NCBI RefSeq assembly: GCF_013702265.1
Contig: NZ_CP059348.1
Coordinates: 2,170,001-2,234,000 of the forward strand
Length of the DNA stretch: 64,000 bases
Source of the DNA: Providencia rettgeri
Lineage (GTDB): Bacteria; Pseudomonadota; Gammaproteobacteria; Enterobacterales; Enterobacteriaceae
Reading direction: 5' to 3'
A model generated the notes under the pieces. The model was not told where the DNA came from. It made no database searches and saw only the letters and a program-made list of their open reading frames with translations. Within the stretch, counting starts at the first letter, position 1. Each line of letters opens with the position of its first letter. Both the position numbers and the translations under genes were made by a program. Below are positions 52,898 to 61,304 of this stretch, in pieces.

Positions 52898-52945
52898 AAA
52901 AGGCTTCAAAAGATTTAGGGTCTCCCTAACGCTTTTGGAGCCTTT
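52898..52945 (+). terminator. Terminator of adhE
   Basis: AAAGGCTTCAAAAG pairs with CTTTTGGAGCCTTT with a short loop and one G-U pair, then a T-run. It lies 35 bases after the stop. Confidence 0.9.
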
Positions 52946-53252
52946 CTCGTTATTGCACCATCATAAACCGATGAGAATATGTCAAAATATTTCCTCGTCA
53001 AAAGAGTAAATTATTGATTTGAAATATATTCACCTCACCATCACTCTTATGCAGTGTAAATTACTAACACTTTCACCCTGATTTGATACACAGTTCACAT
53101 TTATTCCCTTCATTACCTCTTGTATTCTTATTTCATCGAAGCAAGGCGGGCAGTTAATTATCTTGCATTAATTCATTTTCATTAATGGCTCTCACTCACT
53201 GATTTTTATAAATACAAGAGTCACCACATTTAAACTTATTAAGAGAATAATT
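52946..53252. other. Upstream region of the fimbrial cluster
   Basis: About 300 bases, AT-rich, expected to hold the fimbrial promoter. I looked for a fim/mrp-type invertible switch (paired inverted repeats with a recombinase gene) and found neither. The ribosome site AAGAGAA precedes the first pilin gene. Confidence 0.6.
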
Positions 53253-53831
53253 ATGTCATTATTAAATAAAGCTACACCAGCAATCTTATTAGCCTCTGTT
53301 TTAGCAACACCAGCCGCATTTGCGGAAGAAAATACACCACAGGGTAATCACGCGGCCACGGTCACTTTTGAAGCCCACGTTCGTACTGCTAGCTGTAACG
53401 TCTCTTCTACCACTGAAGGCGGCATGGTTAATTGGGGCGTATTTACCTCTCAAAGTGTGAAAGATATTGAGAAAAATACAGCGATTGGCGAAACCAAAAA
53501 CTTTAATTTAGTACTAACCGAGTGCTCTCAACCTCAAAAGGATGACAGTACCGTATTAGTTCATGCATCGGGTTCAGCATCACAATACAACCCAAATTTA
53601 TTTGCAAACTCTGCTGCTAAATCCCTAGCGGTAGAATTAAAAGCCATCAGTGAAAATAGTGGAAAAGTCAGTGTATTACCAAATAAAGAATCAACTGTCG
53701 CGCTGGCAAATAATCTTTCAACGAGTGGCTTTGCTAATATTCCGATGGAAGCACGCTTAATAAAAATCAATGATACAAATGAAGGTGATAGCTTAAAAGT
53801 CCCTGTCACATTTACTGTTTCTTATAATTAA
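53253..53831 (+). CDS. Fimbrial major subunit (pilin)
   Basis: A 192-residue chaperone-usher pilin. The signal peptide ends AAFAEE. The N-terminal donor strand (about 30-48) precedes the first Cys in TASCNVSS, which pairs with the Cys in LTECSQP. The C-terminus FTVSYN has the penultimate Tyr and alternating hydrophobic end-strand of fimbrial subunits. It is the first and most completely pilin-like gene in the cluster, so probably the major shaft subunit. It is followed by a hairpin (53870-53910), then a chaperone gene. Confidence 0.88.
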   Translation: MSLLNKATPAILLASVLATPAAFAEENTPQGNHAATVTFEAHVRTASCNVSSTTEGGMVNWGVFTSQSVKDIEKNTAIGETKNFNLVLTECSQPQKDDSTVLVHASGSASQYNPNLFANSAAKSLAVELKAISENSGKVSVLPNKESTVALANNLSTSGFANIPMEARLIKINDTNEGDSLKVPVTFTVSYN

Positions 53832-53869
53832 TTCCCCATATCAAAATACAATCAATAAGTGTACATTAT

Positions 53870-53910
53870 GGGCAGAGGTCGTTGTTTGTTTCTCTATTGG
53901 GACTCTGCTC
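53870..53910 (+). other. Hairpin between the major pilin and first chaperone genes
   Basis: GCAGA-x-GTC pairs with GAC-TCTGC across 23 bases of loop sequence, with one bulged base. No T-run follows, so transcription is not fully stopped. Such hairpins can raise the level of the major pilin over downstream genes. Confidence 0.45.
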
Positions 53911-53924
53911 ATTAAGGTAACTCG

Positions 53925-54632
53925 ATGAAACTACGTATTAGCAACCTATCTAGTCTATTTTGCAGCTTATTATTTGTTTTTTCTGCCAATGCTACCGCCA
54001 AAGGCGTCAGCTTAGATGCAACTCGTATTGTGTATGTGCAAGGCGAGAAAAGCGTCGCAATATCGGTTGTTAATAGTGAAGCAAAAACCACTTATTTAAC
54101 TCGTGCATTTATTACCACTGAAAATAATGACCGTAATACGCCATTTGAAGTGACGCCCCCTGTATTTAAAGTTGCCCCAAATAGCCAACAAGAAGTCAGA
54201 ATTTTAGCAAAAAATAATACACTCCCCACAGATCGGGAATCACTGTTTTTATTTCATGCAATGATGATTGCAGGTCAATCTGAAAAAGTCGATGGGGATG
54301 GTTTAAATATCGGTTATGACCATGTCATTAAACTATTCTATCGCCCAAAAAATCTGCCATTGACGTCTGATGACGCCCAAAAAAAATTAAAATTTACGGT
54401 TAAAGGTTCCCAATTAATCGCAACCAACGATACACCTTATTACATTAACCTAGCGCAAGTTAAAATTAATCAGCAGCGTCTTGATGTAAGTTTAGAAAAG
54501 AAAAATACCACCATCCCCCCATTTTCGTCATTGAGTTACCCTATTTCACCTAGCATGAACAAAGGTGCCATTATTTGGCGCACCATTACTGACTTAGGGG
54601 GTACCCATGAATTCAATGCGCAACTTCCTTAA
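53925..54632 (+). CDS. Periplasmic fimbrial chaperone 1
   Basis: A 235-residue PapD-like chaperone with a signal peptide (cleaved near NATAKG). Family marks are the G1-strand-type text PVFKVAPNSQQEVRIL, the TDRESLFLFHAM stretch, and the domain-2 core KLFYRPKNLP. It holds pilin subunits in the periplasm by donor-strand complementation. The start has AAGG upstream. A run of eight A (54379-54386) lies in the gene. The next pilin gene starts 26 bases before this stop. Confidence 0.9.
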   Translation: MKLRISNLSSLFCSLLFVFSANATAKGVSLDATRIVYVQGEKSVAISVVNSEAKTTYLTRAFITTENNDRNTPFEVTPPVFKVAPNSQQEVRILAKNNTLPTDRESLFLFHAMMIAGQSEKVDGDGLNIGYDHVIKLFYRPKNLPLTSDDAQKKLKFTVKGSQLIATNDTPYYINLAQVKINQQRLDVSLEKKNTTIPPFSSLSYPISPSMNKGAIIWRTITDLGGTHEFNAQLP

Positions 54633-55179
54633 CGTTACCATTTGTTTTCTCAGCGCATTCTCTTTTTGCCCGACTGCACTTGCTCAATCAAACCAAGATG
54701 CAAGTGTCGACTTAGTGGTAAAAGGTCATGTATCTAAAGGCAGTTGCTCTTTTTCTTTTTCCAATAAAACGGTGACATTCTCGCAGCCTATTATTGCGCG
54801 AAATATACAACAAGATCTTAATGGTGATGCTGCGACAGAGCCTTTCTCTCTTGAATATGTTTGCCAAGATTATAATGGCGAAGAGCTACCTGATTTACAG
54901 GTTTCATTGGCTGCAGATAGTCAGTCATCTATTACGAATGGCAAGCTAGCACCGAAAGAAAACATCACTCATGCTGCATTTTCATTGCGCCAATGTAATA
55001 GCGTGAAAGGAAATTGCCAATCCATTGATTTTACAGGAGACACCTCAACCATTGCATTTCCTGTCACTAATGGCGATAACGAAAAACATTTCGAGGCAAA
55101 AGTGGTGAAATTAGATAATACGCCAGTTAGCGCAGGAAAACTTAGCGCGGCTGTGGTGTTCACGTTTTTGCAACCATGA
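54607..55179 (+). CDS. Fimbrial minor subunit 1
   Basis: A 190-residue pilin-like protein with signal peptide (ending TALAQS). Two Cys pairs are visible (GSCSFSF with YVCQDY, and LRQCNSVKGNC), more than in a shaft pilin. It lacks the penultimate Tyr (end VVFTFLQP). It is likely a minor or tip-linked subunit. It overlaps chaperone 1 by 26 bases. An ATG three codons in (54616) is an alternative start. Confidence 0.8.
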   Translation: MNSMRNFLNVTICFLSAFSFCPTALAQSNQDASVDLVVKGHVSKGSCSFSFSNKTVTFSQPIIARNIQQDLNGDAATEPFSLEYVCQDYNGEELPDLQVSLAADSQSSITNGKLAPKENITHAAFSLRQCNSVKGNCQSIDFTGDTSTIAFPVTNGDNEKHFEAKVVKLDNTPVSAGKLSAAVVFTFLQP

Positions 55180-55221
55180 TCGTGTGTAGATATGACCGTT
55201 GCTAAATATGAGAAGAAAGCC

Positions 55222-55749
55222 ATGAAATTATTATTCAGCACTGCATTATTATCTCTTTTATCCAATCTAGGATGGAGTGCGAATAACGCTGAATTCGATT
55301 TTAATGTCAAAGTTATCGAACAAATGTGTCGAATTTCAATTGAGGGCACTTCCCTGAATGAAGTGGATTTTGGCAATATTACTGTTTCAAATATTGAGAC
55401 CAATCAAGTCCAACCTATTCCAATTACAGTTACGCTCTCTGATTGCACCACCAATAATTTTCACAATGCTGTCGTCAAAGTATCCCCAAAAAACTATATT
55501 GACCCGATTACCTTTATTGATGAGCCAAGCAAAAATTTTGGTGTCAGTTTTTCTGAAAGTAATAACGTTGCAGCTTCTGCAAACTTTAGCGATTTTATTG
55601 AAAAAGGCAGTAATGCTTGGCAAAACATCAGCCAGGATCAACTGCATAAAACCCTTTATACTTATATTCGGTGTCCGTCTGGAAAAACTTGTGATCCGCA
55701 AATTGGCCCTTTCCAATCGACAATTACTTTTTCCTTTATCGTGGATTAA
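55222..55749 (+). CDS. Fimbrial minor subunit 2
   Basis: A 175-residue pilin-like protein. The start at 55222 gives a clean signal peptide (MKLLFSTALLSLLSNLGWSA); the longer frame from 55192 adds ten polar residues and lacks support. Cysteines in QMCRISIEG and LSDCTTNN fit the pilin disulfide, with a second pair near IRCPSGKTCDP. The end is ITFSFIVD, without a penultimate Tyr. It is probably a minor subunit or adaptor. Confidence 0.78.
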   Translation: MKLLFSTALLSLLSNLGWSANNAEFDFNVKVIEQMCRISIEGTSLNEVDFGNITVSNIETNQVQPIPITVTLSDCTTNNFHNAVVKVSPKNYIDPITFIDEPSKNFGVSFSESNNVAASANFSDFIEKGSNAWQNISQDQLHKTLYTYIRCPSGKTCDPQIGPFQSTITFSFIVD

Positions 55750-55759
55750 ATAAGCTGAT

Positions 55760-56461
55760 ATGAAAAAACTGGCTGGCGTTACCTACATAATTTTATTCAT
55801 GATGAGCTTTCTTGCTTACAGCGCTGGCTTGCGTTTAGAACAAACGCGATTAATCTTAAATAGTACCAAACCCAATGCGACATTTACCGTTGTAAATGAT
55901 GATTTGAATCCCTATTTAATTCAAACCGCCGTAACTGAACAATTTGAAGGTGCCAAATCCCCTTATTTTGTGGTGACGCCGCCGCTATTCAGATTAGATG
56001 CAAACAGTAAATTTAGCGCTCGTATATTATTAAAAAATAAAAGCGAACTACCAACAGATAGAGAATCTCTGTTCTTTTTAAATACACGGGCTATTCCAGC
56101 GGAAAAGCATCCTAATGAACAGACAAATGATGCTAAACTCACATTTGTGACAAATATCGTGATTAAAGTCTTTTATCGCCCGAGTCAACTGACCGTACCT
56201 AATAACGCTGTATTCCAGCAAGTAAGCCTAAAGCAACAGGGAAAACAGTGGATGCTAAATAACCCTACACCGTATTATCTGACGGTGGTGAATCTTAAAT
56301 ATAACCAGCAAAGCTACAAGAAAAGCCTGATCCTCCCGCCATTTAGTGATACGGAAATAGCTGATTTACAAGGTCATATTTCCCAAGCCCGTTGGCAGAT
56401 GATTAATGATTTTGGTGGTCTTTCAGACGTTATTATTTATCCACCAGCTAAGAATAAATAA
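55760..56461 (+). CDS. Periplasmic fimbrial chaperone 2
   Basis: A 233-residue PapD-like chaperone with signal peptide (cleaved near AYSAG). It shares TDRESLFFLNTRAIP and IKVFYRPSQLT with the family and with chaperones 1 and 3. It follows minor subunit 2 by 10 bases. Three chaperones in one cluster suggests each serves a different subunit or the adhesin. Confidence 0.88.
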   Translation: MKKLAGVTYIILFMMSFLAYSAGLRLEQTRLILNSTKPNATFTVVNDDLNPYLIQTAVTEQFEGAKSPYFVVTPPLFRLDANSKFSARILLKNKSELPTDRESLFFLNTRAIPAEKHPNEQTNDAKLTFVTNIVIKVFYRPSQLTVPNNAVFQQVSLKQQGKQWMLNNPTPYYLTVVNLKYNQQSYKKSLILPPFSDTEIADLQGHISQARWQMINDFGGLSDVIIYPPAKNK

Positions 56462-56474
56462 GGCAATAAATTCC

Positions 56475-57215
56475 ATGAGACTGATGCGCTTTTCTCTGTT
56501 TTTGTTTTTATTGACGATGTTAGGATTTCCCGTAATCACACAAGCTATTGATGATAGTTTGAAATTCTCATTGCAGCGGCTCACATATATTGCTGGCGAT
56601 AACAGCGTGTCGATGAGTTTGCGTAACACTAGTCAATCGCCGTATCTTATTCAAGCTAATATGTTGTGGCTTGATGAATCCACGGGCTTGAATACTCTTG
56701 ATAAATCAGAAAAAATTCCGTTTACCGTGACGCCGCCATTATACAAATTATCTAGCGATGAGTATTACAGCTGGCGAGTGTTATTTACTGGGAAAACACC
56801 CAGTTTGCCCACAGATCGGGAAAGTGTATTTTTACTCCAATTAAAAGCCATTCCCTCTACAGAGCCACAGCATGATGAATCAATGCAATTTACGGTGACG
56901 CGTTCTCTGCTATTTAAAGTTTATTATCGTCCAGCCAATTTAAAGGGAATGACATTAGAACAAGTGTCCAATCAATTATCCTTTCGACGCGAAAACAATT
57001 ATCTTGTTGTGAAAAACAACAGTCCTATTTATGCGACTTTCGATAATCTTTCAATCAATGGCATTCCCGCAGATAGCGACATACTATTTATGTCAGTCGC
57101 TCCTTATTCTGAACAGCGTTACCCTTTTAAGCAGTTAATCGCTGGAACCATTAGTTGGGCGTTAATGGATGAATATCTCCTACCCACAAAACAAAAAAAC
57201 AGCCTCGTGCAATAA
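56475..57215 (+). CDS. Periplasmic fimbrial chaperone 3
   Basis: A 246-residue PapD-like chaperone from the ATG at 56475 (MRLMRFSLFLFLLTMLGFPV), which gives a signal peptide. The longer frame from 56406 overlaps chaperone 2 and has no signal. Family marks are LYKLSSDEYYSWRVLF, TDRESVFLLQLKAIP and LFKVYYRPANLK. It starts 13 bases after chaperone 2, so the two are co-translated. Confidence 0.86.
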   Translation: MRLMRFSLFLFLLTMLGFPVITQAIDDSLKFSLQRLTYIAGDNSVSMSLRNTSQSPYLIQANMLWLDESTGLNTLDKSEKIPFTVTPPLYKLSSDEYYSWRVLFTGKTPSLPTDRESVFLLQLKAIPSTEPQHDESMQFTVTRSLLFKVYYRPANLKGMTLEQVSNQLSFRRENNYLVVKNNSPIYATFDNLSINGIPADSDILFMSVAPYSEQRYPFKQLIAGTISWALMDEYLLPTKQKNSLVQ

Positions 57216-57258
57216 CTAAAATAGTCTAAAAATACACACAACAGGCAGGCAGCAGCAC

Positions 57259-59826
57259 GTGATAAAGTTACCGAGTTTTAAAATAAGTCTGTTATCTTCT
57301 TTGATTTTGTTTCCGTTTATTGGATACAGCGAAGATTACTTTGACCCTAATTTATTGGATGAGCACCTAGGATTAGATCCTGCACAGGTAGATCTCAGTC
57401 AATTCTCCCAAGAAAATTCCTTACCTCTGGGTCAATATACCTTGTGGGTGACAGTCAATCAGGAACCTCAAGGTGAATACTCCCTGAATTTTGTGAAGAA
57501 TGACAATAACCAAGTTGTTCCTGAGCTATCCATAAAACAATTAGCTACATTCGGAATTGATGTAGATAAAATAAAATCGCTGCGTGATCTTCCCCCTGAC
57601 ACATTAATTACCGACCTTCCTCATTATATTGATGATGCCAAAGTGACTGTAGATCTTTCCAAGCTACGAGTGAATATTAGCGCTCCTCAAATCGCGATGA
57701 ATAACCAGGTTGCCGGGTATATTCCCAAAGAATTATTGGATGACGGTATCCCTGCATTTACCACTAACTATATGATTTCGGGTAACCGCTCTAATAATAA
57801 GCTCTCTACGGGTAAGCAATCTTCCGACAATTTATTTATTAATTTAAACGGCGGATTAAATGCTGGTGCATGGCGGCTCAGAACAAATATGTCTTATGCC
57901 TACAACCGCTATTCCGGTATGGGCAATAACCGCACAAAATCCAGTACCGATTTTGCGAACACCGCAGTATCTCGCCATCTTTATGATATGGGTTCTGACC
58001 TTTTAATTGGTGAAAGTAGCACCCGCGGCGAACTGTTTGATTCGATCCCTTTTAAAGGGGTTCAATTAGCATCCAACGACCAAATGTTACCCAGTAGTTT
58101 ACGCAGTTTTGCACCCAATGTGACGGGAATTGCTCAATCCAATGCCCAGATTACAATCCGGCAAAATGGCTATGTGGTTTATCAAAATTATGTACCGCCG
58201 GGCCCATTTAGTATTGACGATCTGGCTATCGGAAGTAACTCTGGCGCATTAGATGTCACCATCAAGGAAGAGGACGGAACAGAGAGAACATTCACCGTTG
58301 CCTTTGCCTCCCTGCCTATTATGCAGCGCCCTGGTGGATGGAAATATGAATTAACCGCGGGTCGTTACAATGGCGGGGTCACGGTCGGATCGAAAGAAGC
58401 CGACTTTGTCTTAGCTAACGCTATTTATGGACTTCCTTATGACATTACTCTGTATGGGGGCGGTATTGGCGCACAAGATTATTGGTCTGGCATTGCAGGT
58501 TTAGGGCTTTCAATGGGAAATCTTGGCGCTATTTCTACTGATGTGACTCACGCACAAGCGACTCTAGATAATCTTCCAACCCAGAAGGGTCAAGCTTACC
58601 GAGTGCGTTACGCTAAGAATTTCGTAACAACCAATACTTCAGTCGATATCTCAGGCACTCACTATTCATCACAAGATTATTACACCTTTAATAATTTCAA
58701 TAACCATAATTATCGATATATTGATGATATCGCGCCATGGACAGGACTTCCTGAAAAACGTCAATATTCAATCTCAGTTTCACAACCACTCAATAATTTC
58801 GGTTCACTCTATTTTTCAGGAAGCCGTTATGAGTATTGGGATAATCAGCAAAATATTACCCAAGTTTCCGCAGGTTACAATAATAGTTATAAAGGTATTT
58901 CCTACGGGGTTAACTACAGTATTGACCGGACTAAAAATAGCGATCAATGGCCTGAAAACCGTCAAATAAGCTTTAATGTCAGTGTGCCTTTTAGCCTTTT
59001 CTCAAATGACCCTATGCTAACTAATATGAGTAGTACCTATTCGATTAGCCATGATAATAACGGTCGAACAACCCAGCAAGCAGGCCTAAATGGTAATTTA
59101 TTAAATTCAAAACTCACTTATGGTATTTCACAGAGTTGGGGTAATCAGAATCAACGAAACTCGGGGAGCCTCTACACCAACTATGCTGGTAATAGAGGGA
59201 CAGTTTCCGCCGGTTATAGCTATTCTCAAAATTATAATGCATTTAATGGTAGCTTAAATGGTGGTGCCATTATTTATTCTGGTGGATTATTACTTGGTAA
59301 AACCATGGGAAATAGTATGGCTATCATTGAAGCCGAAGGCGCTGAAGGTACGCGCTTAACAATTGCGAATACGCAAATAAACGCCCAAGGTCAGGCTATT
59401 TATCCCTATTTATCTGACTACAGTAAAAATACCGTTGGCTTAGATGTAAATACCTTACCTGAAAATGTCACCTTAAAGCAGACATCGAAAAATGTTTACC
59501 CAACCTCTGGTGCTATCGTCAAAGTTAAATTTGATACTCGAATGGGTTATCAGGCACTTATCAATTTAATTCATCACAATGGTGTCGTTCCATTTGGTGC
59601 TGTTGCGACATTATTGGATGATAATCAAGATGATGAAAATACGGGATTGGTCGGTGATGATGGTCAACTGTATATGAGTGGGCTGCCCAATCAAGGGACA
59701 TTACGCATTCAATGGGGAGCCAGTAAACCACAATCCTGTTTGGCACATTTTACGGGTTTAGATGTGATAACCCCGACGGAAGACCATCCTATTCGGGGTA
59801 TATCAGCAATATGTGTGAGTGAATAA
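57259..59826 (+). CDS. Outer-membrane fimbrial usher
   Basis: An 855-residue usher that receives chaperone-subunit complexes and extrudes the fimbria. GTG start with signal peptide (to about SED). The N-terminal chaperone-binding domain (about 25-140) is followed by the barrel, a plug region, and the C-terminal domains with the Cys pair SCLAHFTGLD and ISAICVSE. It follows chaperone 3 by 43 bases and is the last gene of the plus-strand operon. No adhesin gene follows on this strand; the candidate is the convergent gene 11 bases away. Confidence 0.9.
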   Translation: MIKLPSFKISLLSSLILFPFIGYSEDYFDPNLLDEHLGLDPAQVDLSQFSQENSLPLGQYTLWVTVNQEPQGEYSLNFVKNDNNQVVPELSIKQLATFGIDVDKIKSLRDLPPDTLITDLPHYIDDAKVTVDLSKLRVNISAPQIAMNNQVAGYIPKELLDDGIPAFTTNYMISGNRSNNKLSTGKQSSDNLFINLNGGLNAGAWRLRTNMSYAYNRYSGMGNNRTKSSTDFANTAVSRHLYDMGSDLLIGESSTRGELFDSIPFKGVQLASNDQMLPSSLRSFAPNVTGIAQSNAQITIRQNGYVVYQNYVPPGPFSIDDLAIGSNSGALDVTIKEEDGTERTFTVAFASLPIMQRPGGWKYELTAGRYNGGVTVGSKEADFVLANAIYGLPYDITLYGGGIGAQDYWSGIAGLGLSMGNLGAISTDVTHAQATLDNLPTQKGQAYRVRYAKNFVTTNTSVDISGTHYSSQDYYTFNNFNNHNYRYIDDIAPWTGLPEKRQYSISVSQPLNNFGSLYFSGSRYEYWDNQQNITQVSAGYNNSYKGISYGVNYSIDRTKNSDQWPENRQISFNVSVPFSLFSNDPMLTNMSSTYSISHDNNGRTTQQAGLNGNLLNSKLTYGISQSWGNQNQRNSGSLYTNYAGNRGTVSAGYSYSQNYNAFNGSLNGGAIIYSGGLLLGKTMGNSMAIIEAEGAEGTRLTIANTQINAQGQAIYPYLSDYSKNTVGLDVNTLPENVTLKQTSKNVYPTSGAIVKVKFDTRMGYQALINLIHHNGVVPFGAVATLLDDNQDDENTGLVGDDGQLYMSGLPNQGTLRIQWGASKPQSCLAHFTGLDVITPTEDHPIRGISAICVSE

Positions 59827-59837
59827 CCCCACCACGA

Positions 59838-61013
59838 CTAGCTTTTAATAAAGAAAGCGAGATCCGCTTTTCCTTGATATTCGCCACCTTTCACCTCTGG
59901 GGTTCGGCATAATGCCCATGTCACGTTAAGTAATATGGGTTTTTGAGTATTCTTAATACCTAAATCGACCTCTTCGCCATTAAAACTCATTAATTGTGAA
60001 TTTTTATCATCATTACAGTTTAATTTCAGCGATTTACCCAACTCACTCACGCCGCCTAATACCCACGGTAGTTTTCCAACTTTCATCCCTTCATCAACGG
60101 GTTTTAATAAAAGTTTTTTCGGGTTACTTGGGTCGAAATCGGTCTCTTTCGCTTTAGCCACCATACGAATGGTATCTTGCTTCGTTCCATTACAGCTAAG
60201 AGTAATGGATGAGTTGTACTGCGCTTCCATATCATCCACAAAAGTATGCTGGATATGATTATTGGTTACAGCAGTGACTTCACAAAATCGTAAAATAGTT
60301 AAATCTGCTTCAATGTTCAATAAAATGGTATCTCTTGCTTCAAGATCAAACCCACCCGTCATTAAGTAAAAGGGTTTAGTGCTATTAAATGCAATTTTTC
60401 CTGAAACCAAATCTTGGCTTAAATAAATAGTTTGTGGTTGATTAACTGAGAATCTCAATTGTTTACGCCCTTTCGAGGGAATATCACGGTAATTATCTTG
60501 AGGGTAAAGACAAACACCATTAACTCGTACTTGTGGAATTTCTATCAACTTACTACTAAAGTTTCGCGTAAAAAATGTCCCAGCATAAACGGGTTCTAAA
60601 TTTGTTCCGTGATCCATTATATTGATTTGATAATCAATATTCGGAATCAAATACCCATCAACCTCACCAGAATCACGGTTAGTGAGTGGCACGCCATTTA
60701 AATGATAGAAATAGGGAATTTGGTGCAACCCTGACATATCACAGGAATTCTTAGCTTGGCTGAACCCGACTATGGGAATGGTAAAATTCCAGGATTTTTT
60801 CACTGTGTTTGAATAAACGGGAGTTACATCCAGAAAAACATCGCCCGTCAGCGTTGCTGGTATTTCTCTTGGCACTCGCTCAGCGATGGTAAGATCAACA
60901 ACACCTTGTAATTTCAATGTTGCTGTTTTTGCTAACGCTGTGGACGTATTCCACAGTAAAGAAAACAATAATAAAAGCGTGCCATTTTTAAATGCTGAAA
61001 TACTAAATTTCAT
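59838..61013 (-). CDS. Putative fimbrial tip adhesin, convergent to the usher
   Basis: A 391-residue exported protein (signal peptide ends ALAKT). It looks two-domain: residues about 29-235, without family match from memory, could be a receptor-binding part. Residues about 240-391 end in GKADLAFFIKS, a pilin-like last strand, with Cys in LRFCEV, LSCNGT, LNCNDD and WALCRT. This layout suits a tip adhesin, but it is on the strand opposite to the other fimbrial genes and needs its own promoter. I did not identify a homologue, so adhesin is an inference from context and shape. Confidence 0.6.
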   Translation of the reverse strand: MKFSISAFKNGTLLLLFSLLWNTSTALAKTATLKLQGVVDLTIAERVPREIPATLTGDVFLDVTPVYSNTVKKSWNFTIPIVGFSQAKNSCDMSGLHQIPYFYHLNGVPLTNRDSGEVDGYLIPNIDYQINIMDHGTNLEPVYAGTFFTRNFSSKLIEIPQVRVNGVCLYPQDNYRDIPSKGRKQLRFSVNQPQTIYLSQDLVSGKIAFNSTKPFYLMTGGFDLEARDTILLNIEADLTILRFCEVTAVTNNHIQHTFVDDMEAQYNSSITLSCNGTKQDTIRMVAKAKETDFDPSNPKKLLLKPVDEGMKVGKLPWVLGGVSELGKSLKLNCNDDKNSQLMSFNGEEVDLGIKNTQKPILLNVTWALCRTPEVKGGEYQGKADLAFFIKS

Positions 61014-61090
61014 TACACCCTACCGTTTCGAGCAGATTTGCATTTTTTGATTATATGATAATGTACCAAAGTGTGAAATTAAACTGCCAT

Positions 61091-61124
61091 AAAAAGAAAG
61101 CCCCATGTTAAAAATATGAGGCTT
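61091..61124 (-). terminator. Terminator downstream of tdk
   Basis: On the minus strand AAGCCTCAT pairs with ATGGGGCTT (one G-U), then a T-run. It lies about 180 bases after the tdk stop and before the promoter region of the adhesin-like gene. Confidence 0.75.
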
Positions 61125-61304
61125 ATCAAATCTTATTCAATCCGTTTTTATTCTATGAGCGCTGAAAACTTATCTTCCATGCATCCTTTTTAAGAACTAG
61201 CAAACTGAGTATTTCATTAATTCATTTACTTTATTTGACAAAAATATCTTAATAATCTGATATTCCTATTTGTAACTATATGACCCTCTAATCTTAATTA
61301 ATGC

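What the first reader, a model, noticed from the sequence alone, without database searches (positions are those of the whole stretch)
53253..61013. Chaperone-usher fimbrial cluster inserted between adhE and tdk, with three chaperones and a convergent adhesin-like gene
The sequence shows three pilin-like genes, three PapD-type chaperones and one usher in a single plus-strand run, then a 391-residue exported protein 11 bases away on the opposite strand. From established knowledge, typical fim/pap clusters have one chaperone and keep the adhesin in the same operon. Three chaperones suggest subunit-specific pairing. The E. coli adhE-tdk region has no such cluster, so this is a lineage insertion. 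The adhesin role is inference. This is the best candidate in the window for an undescribed variant of a known system.
Basis: partly seen in the sequence, partly recalled or inferred. Interest (0 to 1): 0.7.

Follow-up and report, generated by a model that had tools for sequence, protein, structure and literature searches.

The report
Three-chaperone fimbria with flipped adhesin gene
This is a gene set for a hair-like adhesive fibre that uses three helper chaperones, a layout that turns out to be common in related bacteria; what is unusual here is that the gene for the likely sticky tip has been turned round and separated from the rest.

Summary
In detail: three pilins, three full-length PapD-type chaperones and a FimD/LpfC-like usher on the plus strand, then a 391-aa protein 11 bases away on the minus strand. 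The interpretation changes in three ways. (1) Three chaperones are the rule in this usher family: 53 of 59 related loci have at least three, 46 in A-B-C order; 987P-type fimbriae are a published precedent. (2) The 391-aa protein belongs to the tip-like family that follows the usher; 46 of 48 such genes lie on the usher's strand. Only the window and its sister cluster in another Providencia are convergent, so one old inversion. (3) It is not simply a lineage insertion: six of the 23 other congeneric genomes examined keep remnants at adhE-tdk, five with a short stretch of the reversed tip start, three with an intact orphan chaperone B. Chaperone A co-varies with the major pilin and chaperone C with the tip, suggesting a shaft module and a tip module; strong in 11 close loci, weaker in 31. 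No structure could be predicted. A new variant of a known kind, of moderate interest.

The parts
53253..53831 (+). pilA1, probable major pilin (192 aa)
   Evidence: co-varies with chaperone A
53925..54632 (+). chaperone A (235 aa, PapD_N + PapD_C)
   Evidence: A lineage is one clade in 11 loci
54607..55179 (+). pil2, minor pilin/adaptor (190 aa), overlaps chaperone A by 26 bases
55192..55749 (+). pil3, minor pilin/adaptor (185 aa)
55760..56461 (+). chaperone B (233 aa)
   Evidence: an intact orphan gene at this site in three relatives
56406..57215 (+). chaperone C (269 aa as called; likelier start 56475, 246 aa)
   Evidence: co-varies with the tip
57259..59826 (+). outer-membrane usher (855 aa, PapC_N/Usher/PapC_C), FimD/LpfC-like
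59838..61013 (-). convergent tip-adhesin-like protein (391 aa): signal-like N-terminus by eye, N-terminal half of unknown structure, C-terminal half probably pilin-like
61050..61077 (-). promoter-like site TTCACA-16-TATAAT, 36 bases before the tip start
   Evidence: 11 of 12 matches; consensus match only, number of sites not above shuffles
59853..59871 (.). hairpin near the 3' end of the tip gene, terminator-like on both strands
   Evidence: weak
52899..52945 (.). hairpin after adhE; homology with relatives' decayed sites runs to 52954-52966 on this side
60996..61304 (.). tip 5' end and upstream DNA shared with relatives whose cluster is decayed; in three of them the homology ends at 60996

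Best explanation
A classical chaperone-usher fimbria of an Enterobacterales-wide three-chaperone family. By inference, chaperone A folds the major pilin that forms the shaft, chaperone C folds the tip adhesin, and chaperone B serves one or both minor (adaptor) pilins; all deliver to one usher, which exports tip first and shaft last by donor-strand exchange (general mechanism recalled from the field). In the window's lineage the tip gene, normally directly behind the usher on the same strand, was once inverted, so it is probably transcribed from its own promoter and the adhesin dose is uncoupled from the shaft operon. Shown by sequence: the parts, the separate lineages of A, B and C, the tip's family, the single origin of the inversion on the usher tree, and decay at this site in relatives. 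Inferred: chaperone pairing, adhesion, order of assembly, promoter use.
For: Domains. Same layout in Providencia relatives and on plasmids of Morganella, P. rettgeri, Pectobacterium (first chaperone split), Enterobacter and Rahnella; at least three chaperones in 53 of 59 loci, 46 in A-B-C order by best profile. A, B and C each form one clade over 11 loci, support 99/97, 97/93 and 100/100. 48 post-usher proteins form one BLAST cluster; the window's tip profile aligns over most of its length to the wider set (hhalign 97.4%, E 1.4e-11; 96.6%), and two wider members hit Pfam Fimbrial in their C-terminal half at 2.5e-4 and 8e-4, below cut-off. Tree: window + L051 are sisters, SH-aLRT 100, the only two convergent ones. 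Co-variation: pilA1-chA r 0.94 and chC-tip r 0.97 in 11 loci; partial given usher 0.72 and 0.89 in 9 loci. chC lies next to the tip where the order differs (L055-L059, L062). Promoter-like site 11/12 before the tip.
Against: In the wider set (31 loci) co-variation is weaker: chC is the tip's best partner in 78 of 100 resamplings (66 after correcting for the usher), and pilA1's best partner is split, chA 49 and chC 51 (70 and 30 after correction). pil2 and pil3 also co-vary with chC and the tip, so the signal may follow blocks of recombination. Chaperone B has no clear partner. The window's tip itself hits no Pfam, NCBIfam or PDB entry, and direct profile comparison with this cluster's own pilins gave 1-3% probability, so the pilin-like half rests on the wider family; three further Fimbrial hits there (E 0.02-0.05) are no better than chance hits to unrelated families in the same scan. 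The number of promoter-like sites near the tip is not above shuffles (2 found, 2.7 expected), and no promoter-like site was found on the plus strand before pilA1. No expression data; no structure.
Confidence: 0.7

Rival explanations
1. The inverted tip gene is a relic: the cluster makes tip-less or alternative-tip fibres and the convergent gene is no longer coordinated with it.
For: The cluster is decayed at this site in six of 23 other congeneric genomes, including one of the same species; a tip fragment is all that was found at the second site in G156.
Against: Both convergent tip genes (window and L051) are full length after 31% usher divergence, with the family's cysteines intact, and a good promoter-like site precedes the window's.
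Confidence: 0.15
2. The three chaperones are redundant duplicates with overlapping clients rather than dedicated ones.
For: All three keep both PapD domains and the Arg and Lys positions thought to anchor subunits (alignment; the roles of these residues are recalled). In the wide set pilA1 co-varies about equally with A and C.
Against: A, B and C are separate lineages (11 loci) and at least three chaperones are kept in 53 of 59 loci. chC-tip and chA-pilA1 co-variation in close loci.
Confidence: 0.25
3. The cluster was newly brought into this site in this strain (insertion or regain by recombination) rather than inherited there.
For: G090, of the same species, and G150 and G151 share nearly the same scar edges (52954-52966 and 60996), so the decayed allele looks older than the split of G000 and G090.
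Against: Relatives G158 and G149 keep remnants of the same cluster, with the reversed tip start, at the same site, so the site itself is ancestral for it. Regain by homologous recombination and retention cannot be told apart here.
Confidence: 0.35

Closest known systems
987P (F6), CS18 and CS30 fimbriae of E. coli (gamma-2 clade)
   Same: One usher, three chaperone genes, a large last subunit (396 aa in CS30) as adhesin; subunit-specific chaperones are credited to 987P (passages of PMC5624918, and PMC3373541).
   Different: In CS30 two of three chaperones hold only the N-terminal PapD domain (143 and 136 aa) and the chaperones stand on both sides of the usher. Here all three are full length and, in the window, all precede the usher.
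Type 1 / Lpf fimbriae (gamma-1 type)
   Same: The usher's best NCBIfam models are LpfC, PRK15193 and FimD; the best solved relatives are annotated FimD or fimbrial usher.
   Different: All below NCBIfam cut-offs (598.7 against 1271, 595.9 against 995, 540.8 against 975 bits); those systems have one chaperone (recalled).
CupD fimbriae of Pseudomonas aeruginosa
   Same: A second chaperone beside a separate putative adhesin gene (CupD4, CupD5; passages of PMC2696094).
   Different: Two chaperones, not three; no sequence link was tested.
The unnamed three-chaperone clusters found here (for example Morganella plasmid NZ_CP135145.1, P. rettgeri plasmid NZ_CP082352.1)
   Same: Same gene types and order, usher identity 43-49% for the five plasmid loci.
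   Different: Tip-like gene on the usher's strand, from 56 bases of overlap to 153 bases of gap in the loci scored.

Membership tests
Classical chaperone-usher fimbria | Usher with PapC_N, barrel and PapC_C domains | tested here: met
Classical chaperone-usher fimbria | PapD-type two-domain chaperone | tested here: met
   three of three
Classical chaperone-usher fimbria | Pilin subunits | tested here: met
   Pfam Fimbrial 27.9 and 24.4 bits for two of three (cut-off 25.6); for the third only NCBIfam pilin models below cut-off
Classical chaperone-usher fimbria | Two-domain tip adhesin | tested here: inconclusive
   Pilin-like C-terminal half supported only through the wider family, not directly or by structure; adhesion not tested
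987P/CS18/CS30 (gamma-2) fimbriae | Three chaperones | tested here: met
987P/CS18/CS30 (gamma-2) fimbriae | Two of the chaperones hold only the N-terminal domain | tested here: not met
   all three have both domains; feature taken from PMC5624918 on CS30
987P/CS18/CS30 (gamma-2) fimbriae | Usher groups with the gamma-2 ushers | tested here: inconclusive
   Only a proxy: this genome's own 987P-like cluster (L150) has an usher 33% identical that falls just outside the three-chaperone family on a long branch whose place the tool calls unsure (SH-aLRT 92-93). No gamma-2 reference was fetched.
Type 1 (FimD) or Lpf equivalogs | NCBIfam curated cut-off of the usher | tested here: not met
Three-chaperone usher family as met here | chA..chB..chC, usher, post-usher tip-like gene | tested here: met
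   the tip's strand deviates

The most novel reading that the evidence does not exclude
A modular fimbria in which shaft (major pilin + chaperone A) and tip (minor pilins + chaperone C + adhesin) evolve as two separate units sharing one usher, and in one Providencia lineage the adhesin has been flipped onto its own promoter, so the cell sets tip and shaft independently; after cluster decay the remaining chaperone B is kept to serve other fimbriae in trans.
Probability: 0.25. Interest if true: 0.6.

Novelty: new variant of a known kind. Interest (0 to 1): 0.4.

Why it matters
It makes an old question testable in many natural replicates: why some fimbriae keep several chaperones for one usher. 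The three chaperone lineages are separable by sequence, a subunit partner can be predicted for two of them, and the same genus offers same-strand, convergent and chC-after-tip arrangements as well as orphan chaperone genes. For the tip family no Pfam or NCBIfam entry above cut-off and no solved relative was found among the members scanned.

Tried and rejected
Invertible switch: no convincing inverted repeats flank the tip gene (the longest pair is 26 nt at 77%) or lie before pilA1, and the remnants seen have the same orientation, so phase inversion of the tip gene was set aside. Direct profile comparison of the tip with this cluster's pilins failed (1-3%). PDB profile searches gave nothing meaningful. 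Genome-contig scans gave none and three loci; the plasmid scan with the tip gave none. In 149 genomes sampled about one per genus, only this genome has a BLAST-level tip relative. L148's opposite-strand ORF behind the usher has no BLAST or profile link to the tips; its start looks like a purine-synthesis enzyme (recalled).

Rows dropped: the 11-locus co-variation used 11 of 14 close loci; L056 (near copy of L055), L062 and L063 (broken genes) were left out, and L054's usher was used in its longer piece. The wide run kept 40 of 59 loci (19 dropped: missing chaperones, tip or pilin, short usher, or a post gene that I judged not tip-like at its C-terminus) and 31 after removing near-duplicates. 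The 59 loci are not a random sample: 20 are 20 of the 23 places listed, 20 I picked from the further matches, five are plasmid hits I picked from 40 listed.

Paper searches. I saw no paper in these listings that names this cluster. I read passages only, of PMC5624918, PMC5560535, PMC4654587, PMC3373541, PMC2696094, PMC3521468 and PMC3542290. PMC3542290 reports many usher genes in Providencia but, in the passages seen, no such layout. The library is partial.

Full report
Observation. The window lies in a 4.02-Mb one-contig genome with 18 usher matches and 24 PapD matches; by position, 14 clusters have one PapD-type gene, two have two (near 569.8 kb and 1580.9 kb) and two have three (the window and one at 924-930 kb). 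The genus is Providencia: contig lengths of congeneric genomes G169, G170 and G153 equal those of the named records NZ_JAGSPI010000001.1 and NZ_CP048796.1 (both P. vermicola) and NZ_CP053896.1 (P. rettgeri). The species was not identified.

The layout is a family trait. In the genus, 11 of 24 genomes have a tip relative, 12 places in all, one of them a fragment. The gene map of 14 fetched loci shows the set pilA1-chA-pil2-pil3-chB-chC-usher-tip in L051-L054 (L054's usher is in two pieces); in L055-L059 and L062 chC comes after the tip; L060, L061 and L063 have the set with a more distant tip; L064 has no intact cluster. A wider set of 59 loci (the window; L051-L063; five plasmid loci; 20 places from the one-per-genus search; 20 picked congeneric places) was scored with profiles built from the window's relatives. 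53 of 59 have at least three chaperone calls near the usher, 46 of 59 in A-B-C order by best profile, 40 of 59 with all three before the usher (L107 counts a 55-bit fragment; in L106, L132, L139 and L141 the third chaperone scores slightly better with another profile). The six with fewer are L111, L112 (contig edge), L113, L115, L124 (same usher as L114) and L144. Some loci are near-copies and the set is chosen by usher similarity, so these are counts of loci, not of independent events. In 11 close loci chaperones A, B and C each form one clade.

The tip. Behind the usher stands a gene of about 290-440 aa in most of these loci. 48 such proteins, 46 on the usher's strand plus the two convergent ones, join in one BLAST cluster; three other post-usher ORFs did not (two carry Sel1 and SPOR domains; one is the end of a broken usher gene). 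The 11 close tips share six invariant cysteines. The window's tip profile aligns with 23 distant members from about residue 78 to the end (97.4%, E 1.4e-11) and with L060/L061/L063 (96.6%). The same comparison with the cluster's own pilins gave 1-3%, which does not support a pilin domain directly. Five of ten distant members reach the Pfam Fimbrial model in their C-terminal half, all below the cut-off: two at 2.5e-4 and 8e-4, three at 0.02-0.05, the level of chance hits in that scan. I read the protein as a two-domain tip adhesin from its family, its place and its C-terminal pattern; adhesion itself is inference. No Pfam, NCBIfam or PDB relative was found for the window's tip.

The inversion. 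Opposite-strand ORFs of tip size within 700 bases behind the usher occur in three of 59 loci; the one in L148 is unrelated. The two real cases, the window and L051, are sister ushers (SH-aLRT 100, quick tree) at 69% identity, so one inversion, old and kept. They sit at different sites: adhE-tdk here; in L051 before an excinuclease-like gene (name recalled), and a tip fragment lies in the corresponding gap in G156 (L064). A promoter-like site (11 of 12) precedes the window's tip, but the count of such sites there is not above shuffles. No flanking inverted repeats speak for a switch.

The site. Of 24 congeneric genomes, adhE-tdk holds the intact cluster in one (the window's); recognisable remnants in six (G090, G149, G150, G151, G158, G163); a long gap without window genes at E 1e-3 in three (G152, G159, G167); and about 200-420 bases in 14. 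G158 keeps the end of pil3, an intact chB, the start of chC and the first 11 codons of the tip in reverse orientation; G149 keeps pil3 pieces, an intact chB, usher pieces and a tip start; G163 only an intact chB (55%); G150 and G151 keep chC pieces, and G090, of the same species as the window, a weak chC piece (E 2e-4). In these last three the tip start is only about 17 bases of homology beyond the start codon's place, so it is weaker evidence than in G158 and G149. The cluster with its reversed tip was thus at this site in an ancestor of at least the window's genome, G158 and G149. As G090, G150 and G151 share nearly the same scar edges, the window's copy may have been regained by recombination rather than kept.

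Orphan chaperone B. It is intact in G158, G149 and G163, keeps both PapD domains in the two scanned, and dN/dS against the window is 0.16, 0.18 and 0.19. In G149 neighbouring pil3 pieces show 0.33-0.36 with stops and frame breaks while chB has none (a rough Poisson chance of 0.012). Against this: in G158 the contrast is weak (chC piece 0.20), and short decayed pieces elsewhere range from 0.05 to 0.47 (usher in G149, chC in G150 and G151), so a low ratio alone proves little. Retention by selection is suggested, not shown.

Pairing. In 11 close loci distance matrices give r = 0.94 for pilA1-chA and 0.97 for chC-tip; given the usher, over 9 loci, 0.72 and 0.89, whereas pilA1-chC is -0.19 and chA-tip -0.12. 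pil2 and pil3 go with chC and the tip although pil2 overlaps chA, which argues against linkage alone. chB has no clear partner. In 31 wider loci the tip still prefers chC (78 of 100 resamplings; 66 after correction), but pilA1 is split (49 chA, 51 chC; 70 and 30 after correction).

Known systems. CS30, related to CS18 and 987P, has three chaperones and a 396-aa adhesin, but two chaperones are half-size; subunit-specific chaperones are credited to 987P in PMC3373541; CupD has two chaperones. I found no description of the present layout in the searches listed. It is therefore a new variant of a known kind, and its broad family seems to lack a name in what I could search.

Noticed in passing
L150 4363-9862 (window genome, about 1579.9-1585.4 kb): A second multi-chaperone cluster of 987P/CS18 look: half-size chaperone, usher, half-size chaperone, pilin, 408-aa protein, tyrosine recombinase; no major pilin or full chaperone among ORFs of 110 aa or more in the stretch; two phage-type integrases upstream.
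   Followed up: partly
L090 3256-3957, L091 3164-3868, L092 (adhE-tdk gap): Intact orphan chaperone B genes between adhE and tdk in three relatives whose cluster is decayed.
   Followed up: partly
L055 15268-16341, L057 16054-17145, L058 3687-4769: A type 2 asparaginase gene directly after the fimbrial cluster.
   Followed up: no
L106 11901-13550, L111 10545-11756, L113 3744-4886: Proteins with Sel1 repeats and a SPOR domain after the fimbrial genes; SPOR suggests septal localisation (recalled).
   Followed up: no
L052 5477-6040 and 6939-7502: Two near-identical copies of the major pilin gene in front of the cluster of G162.
   Followed up: no
L118 (window genome, 919.5-934 kb): A second cluster of the same three-chaperone family, with the tip-like gene on the usher's strand.
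   Followed up: partly
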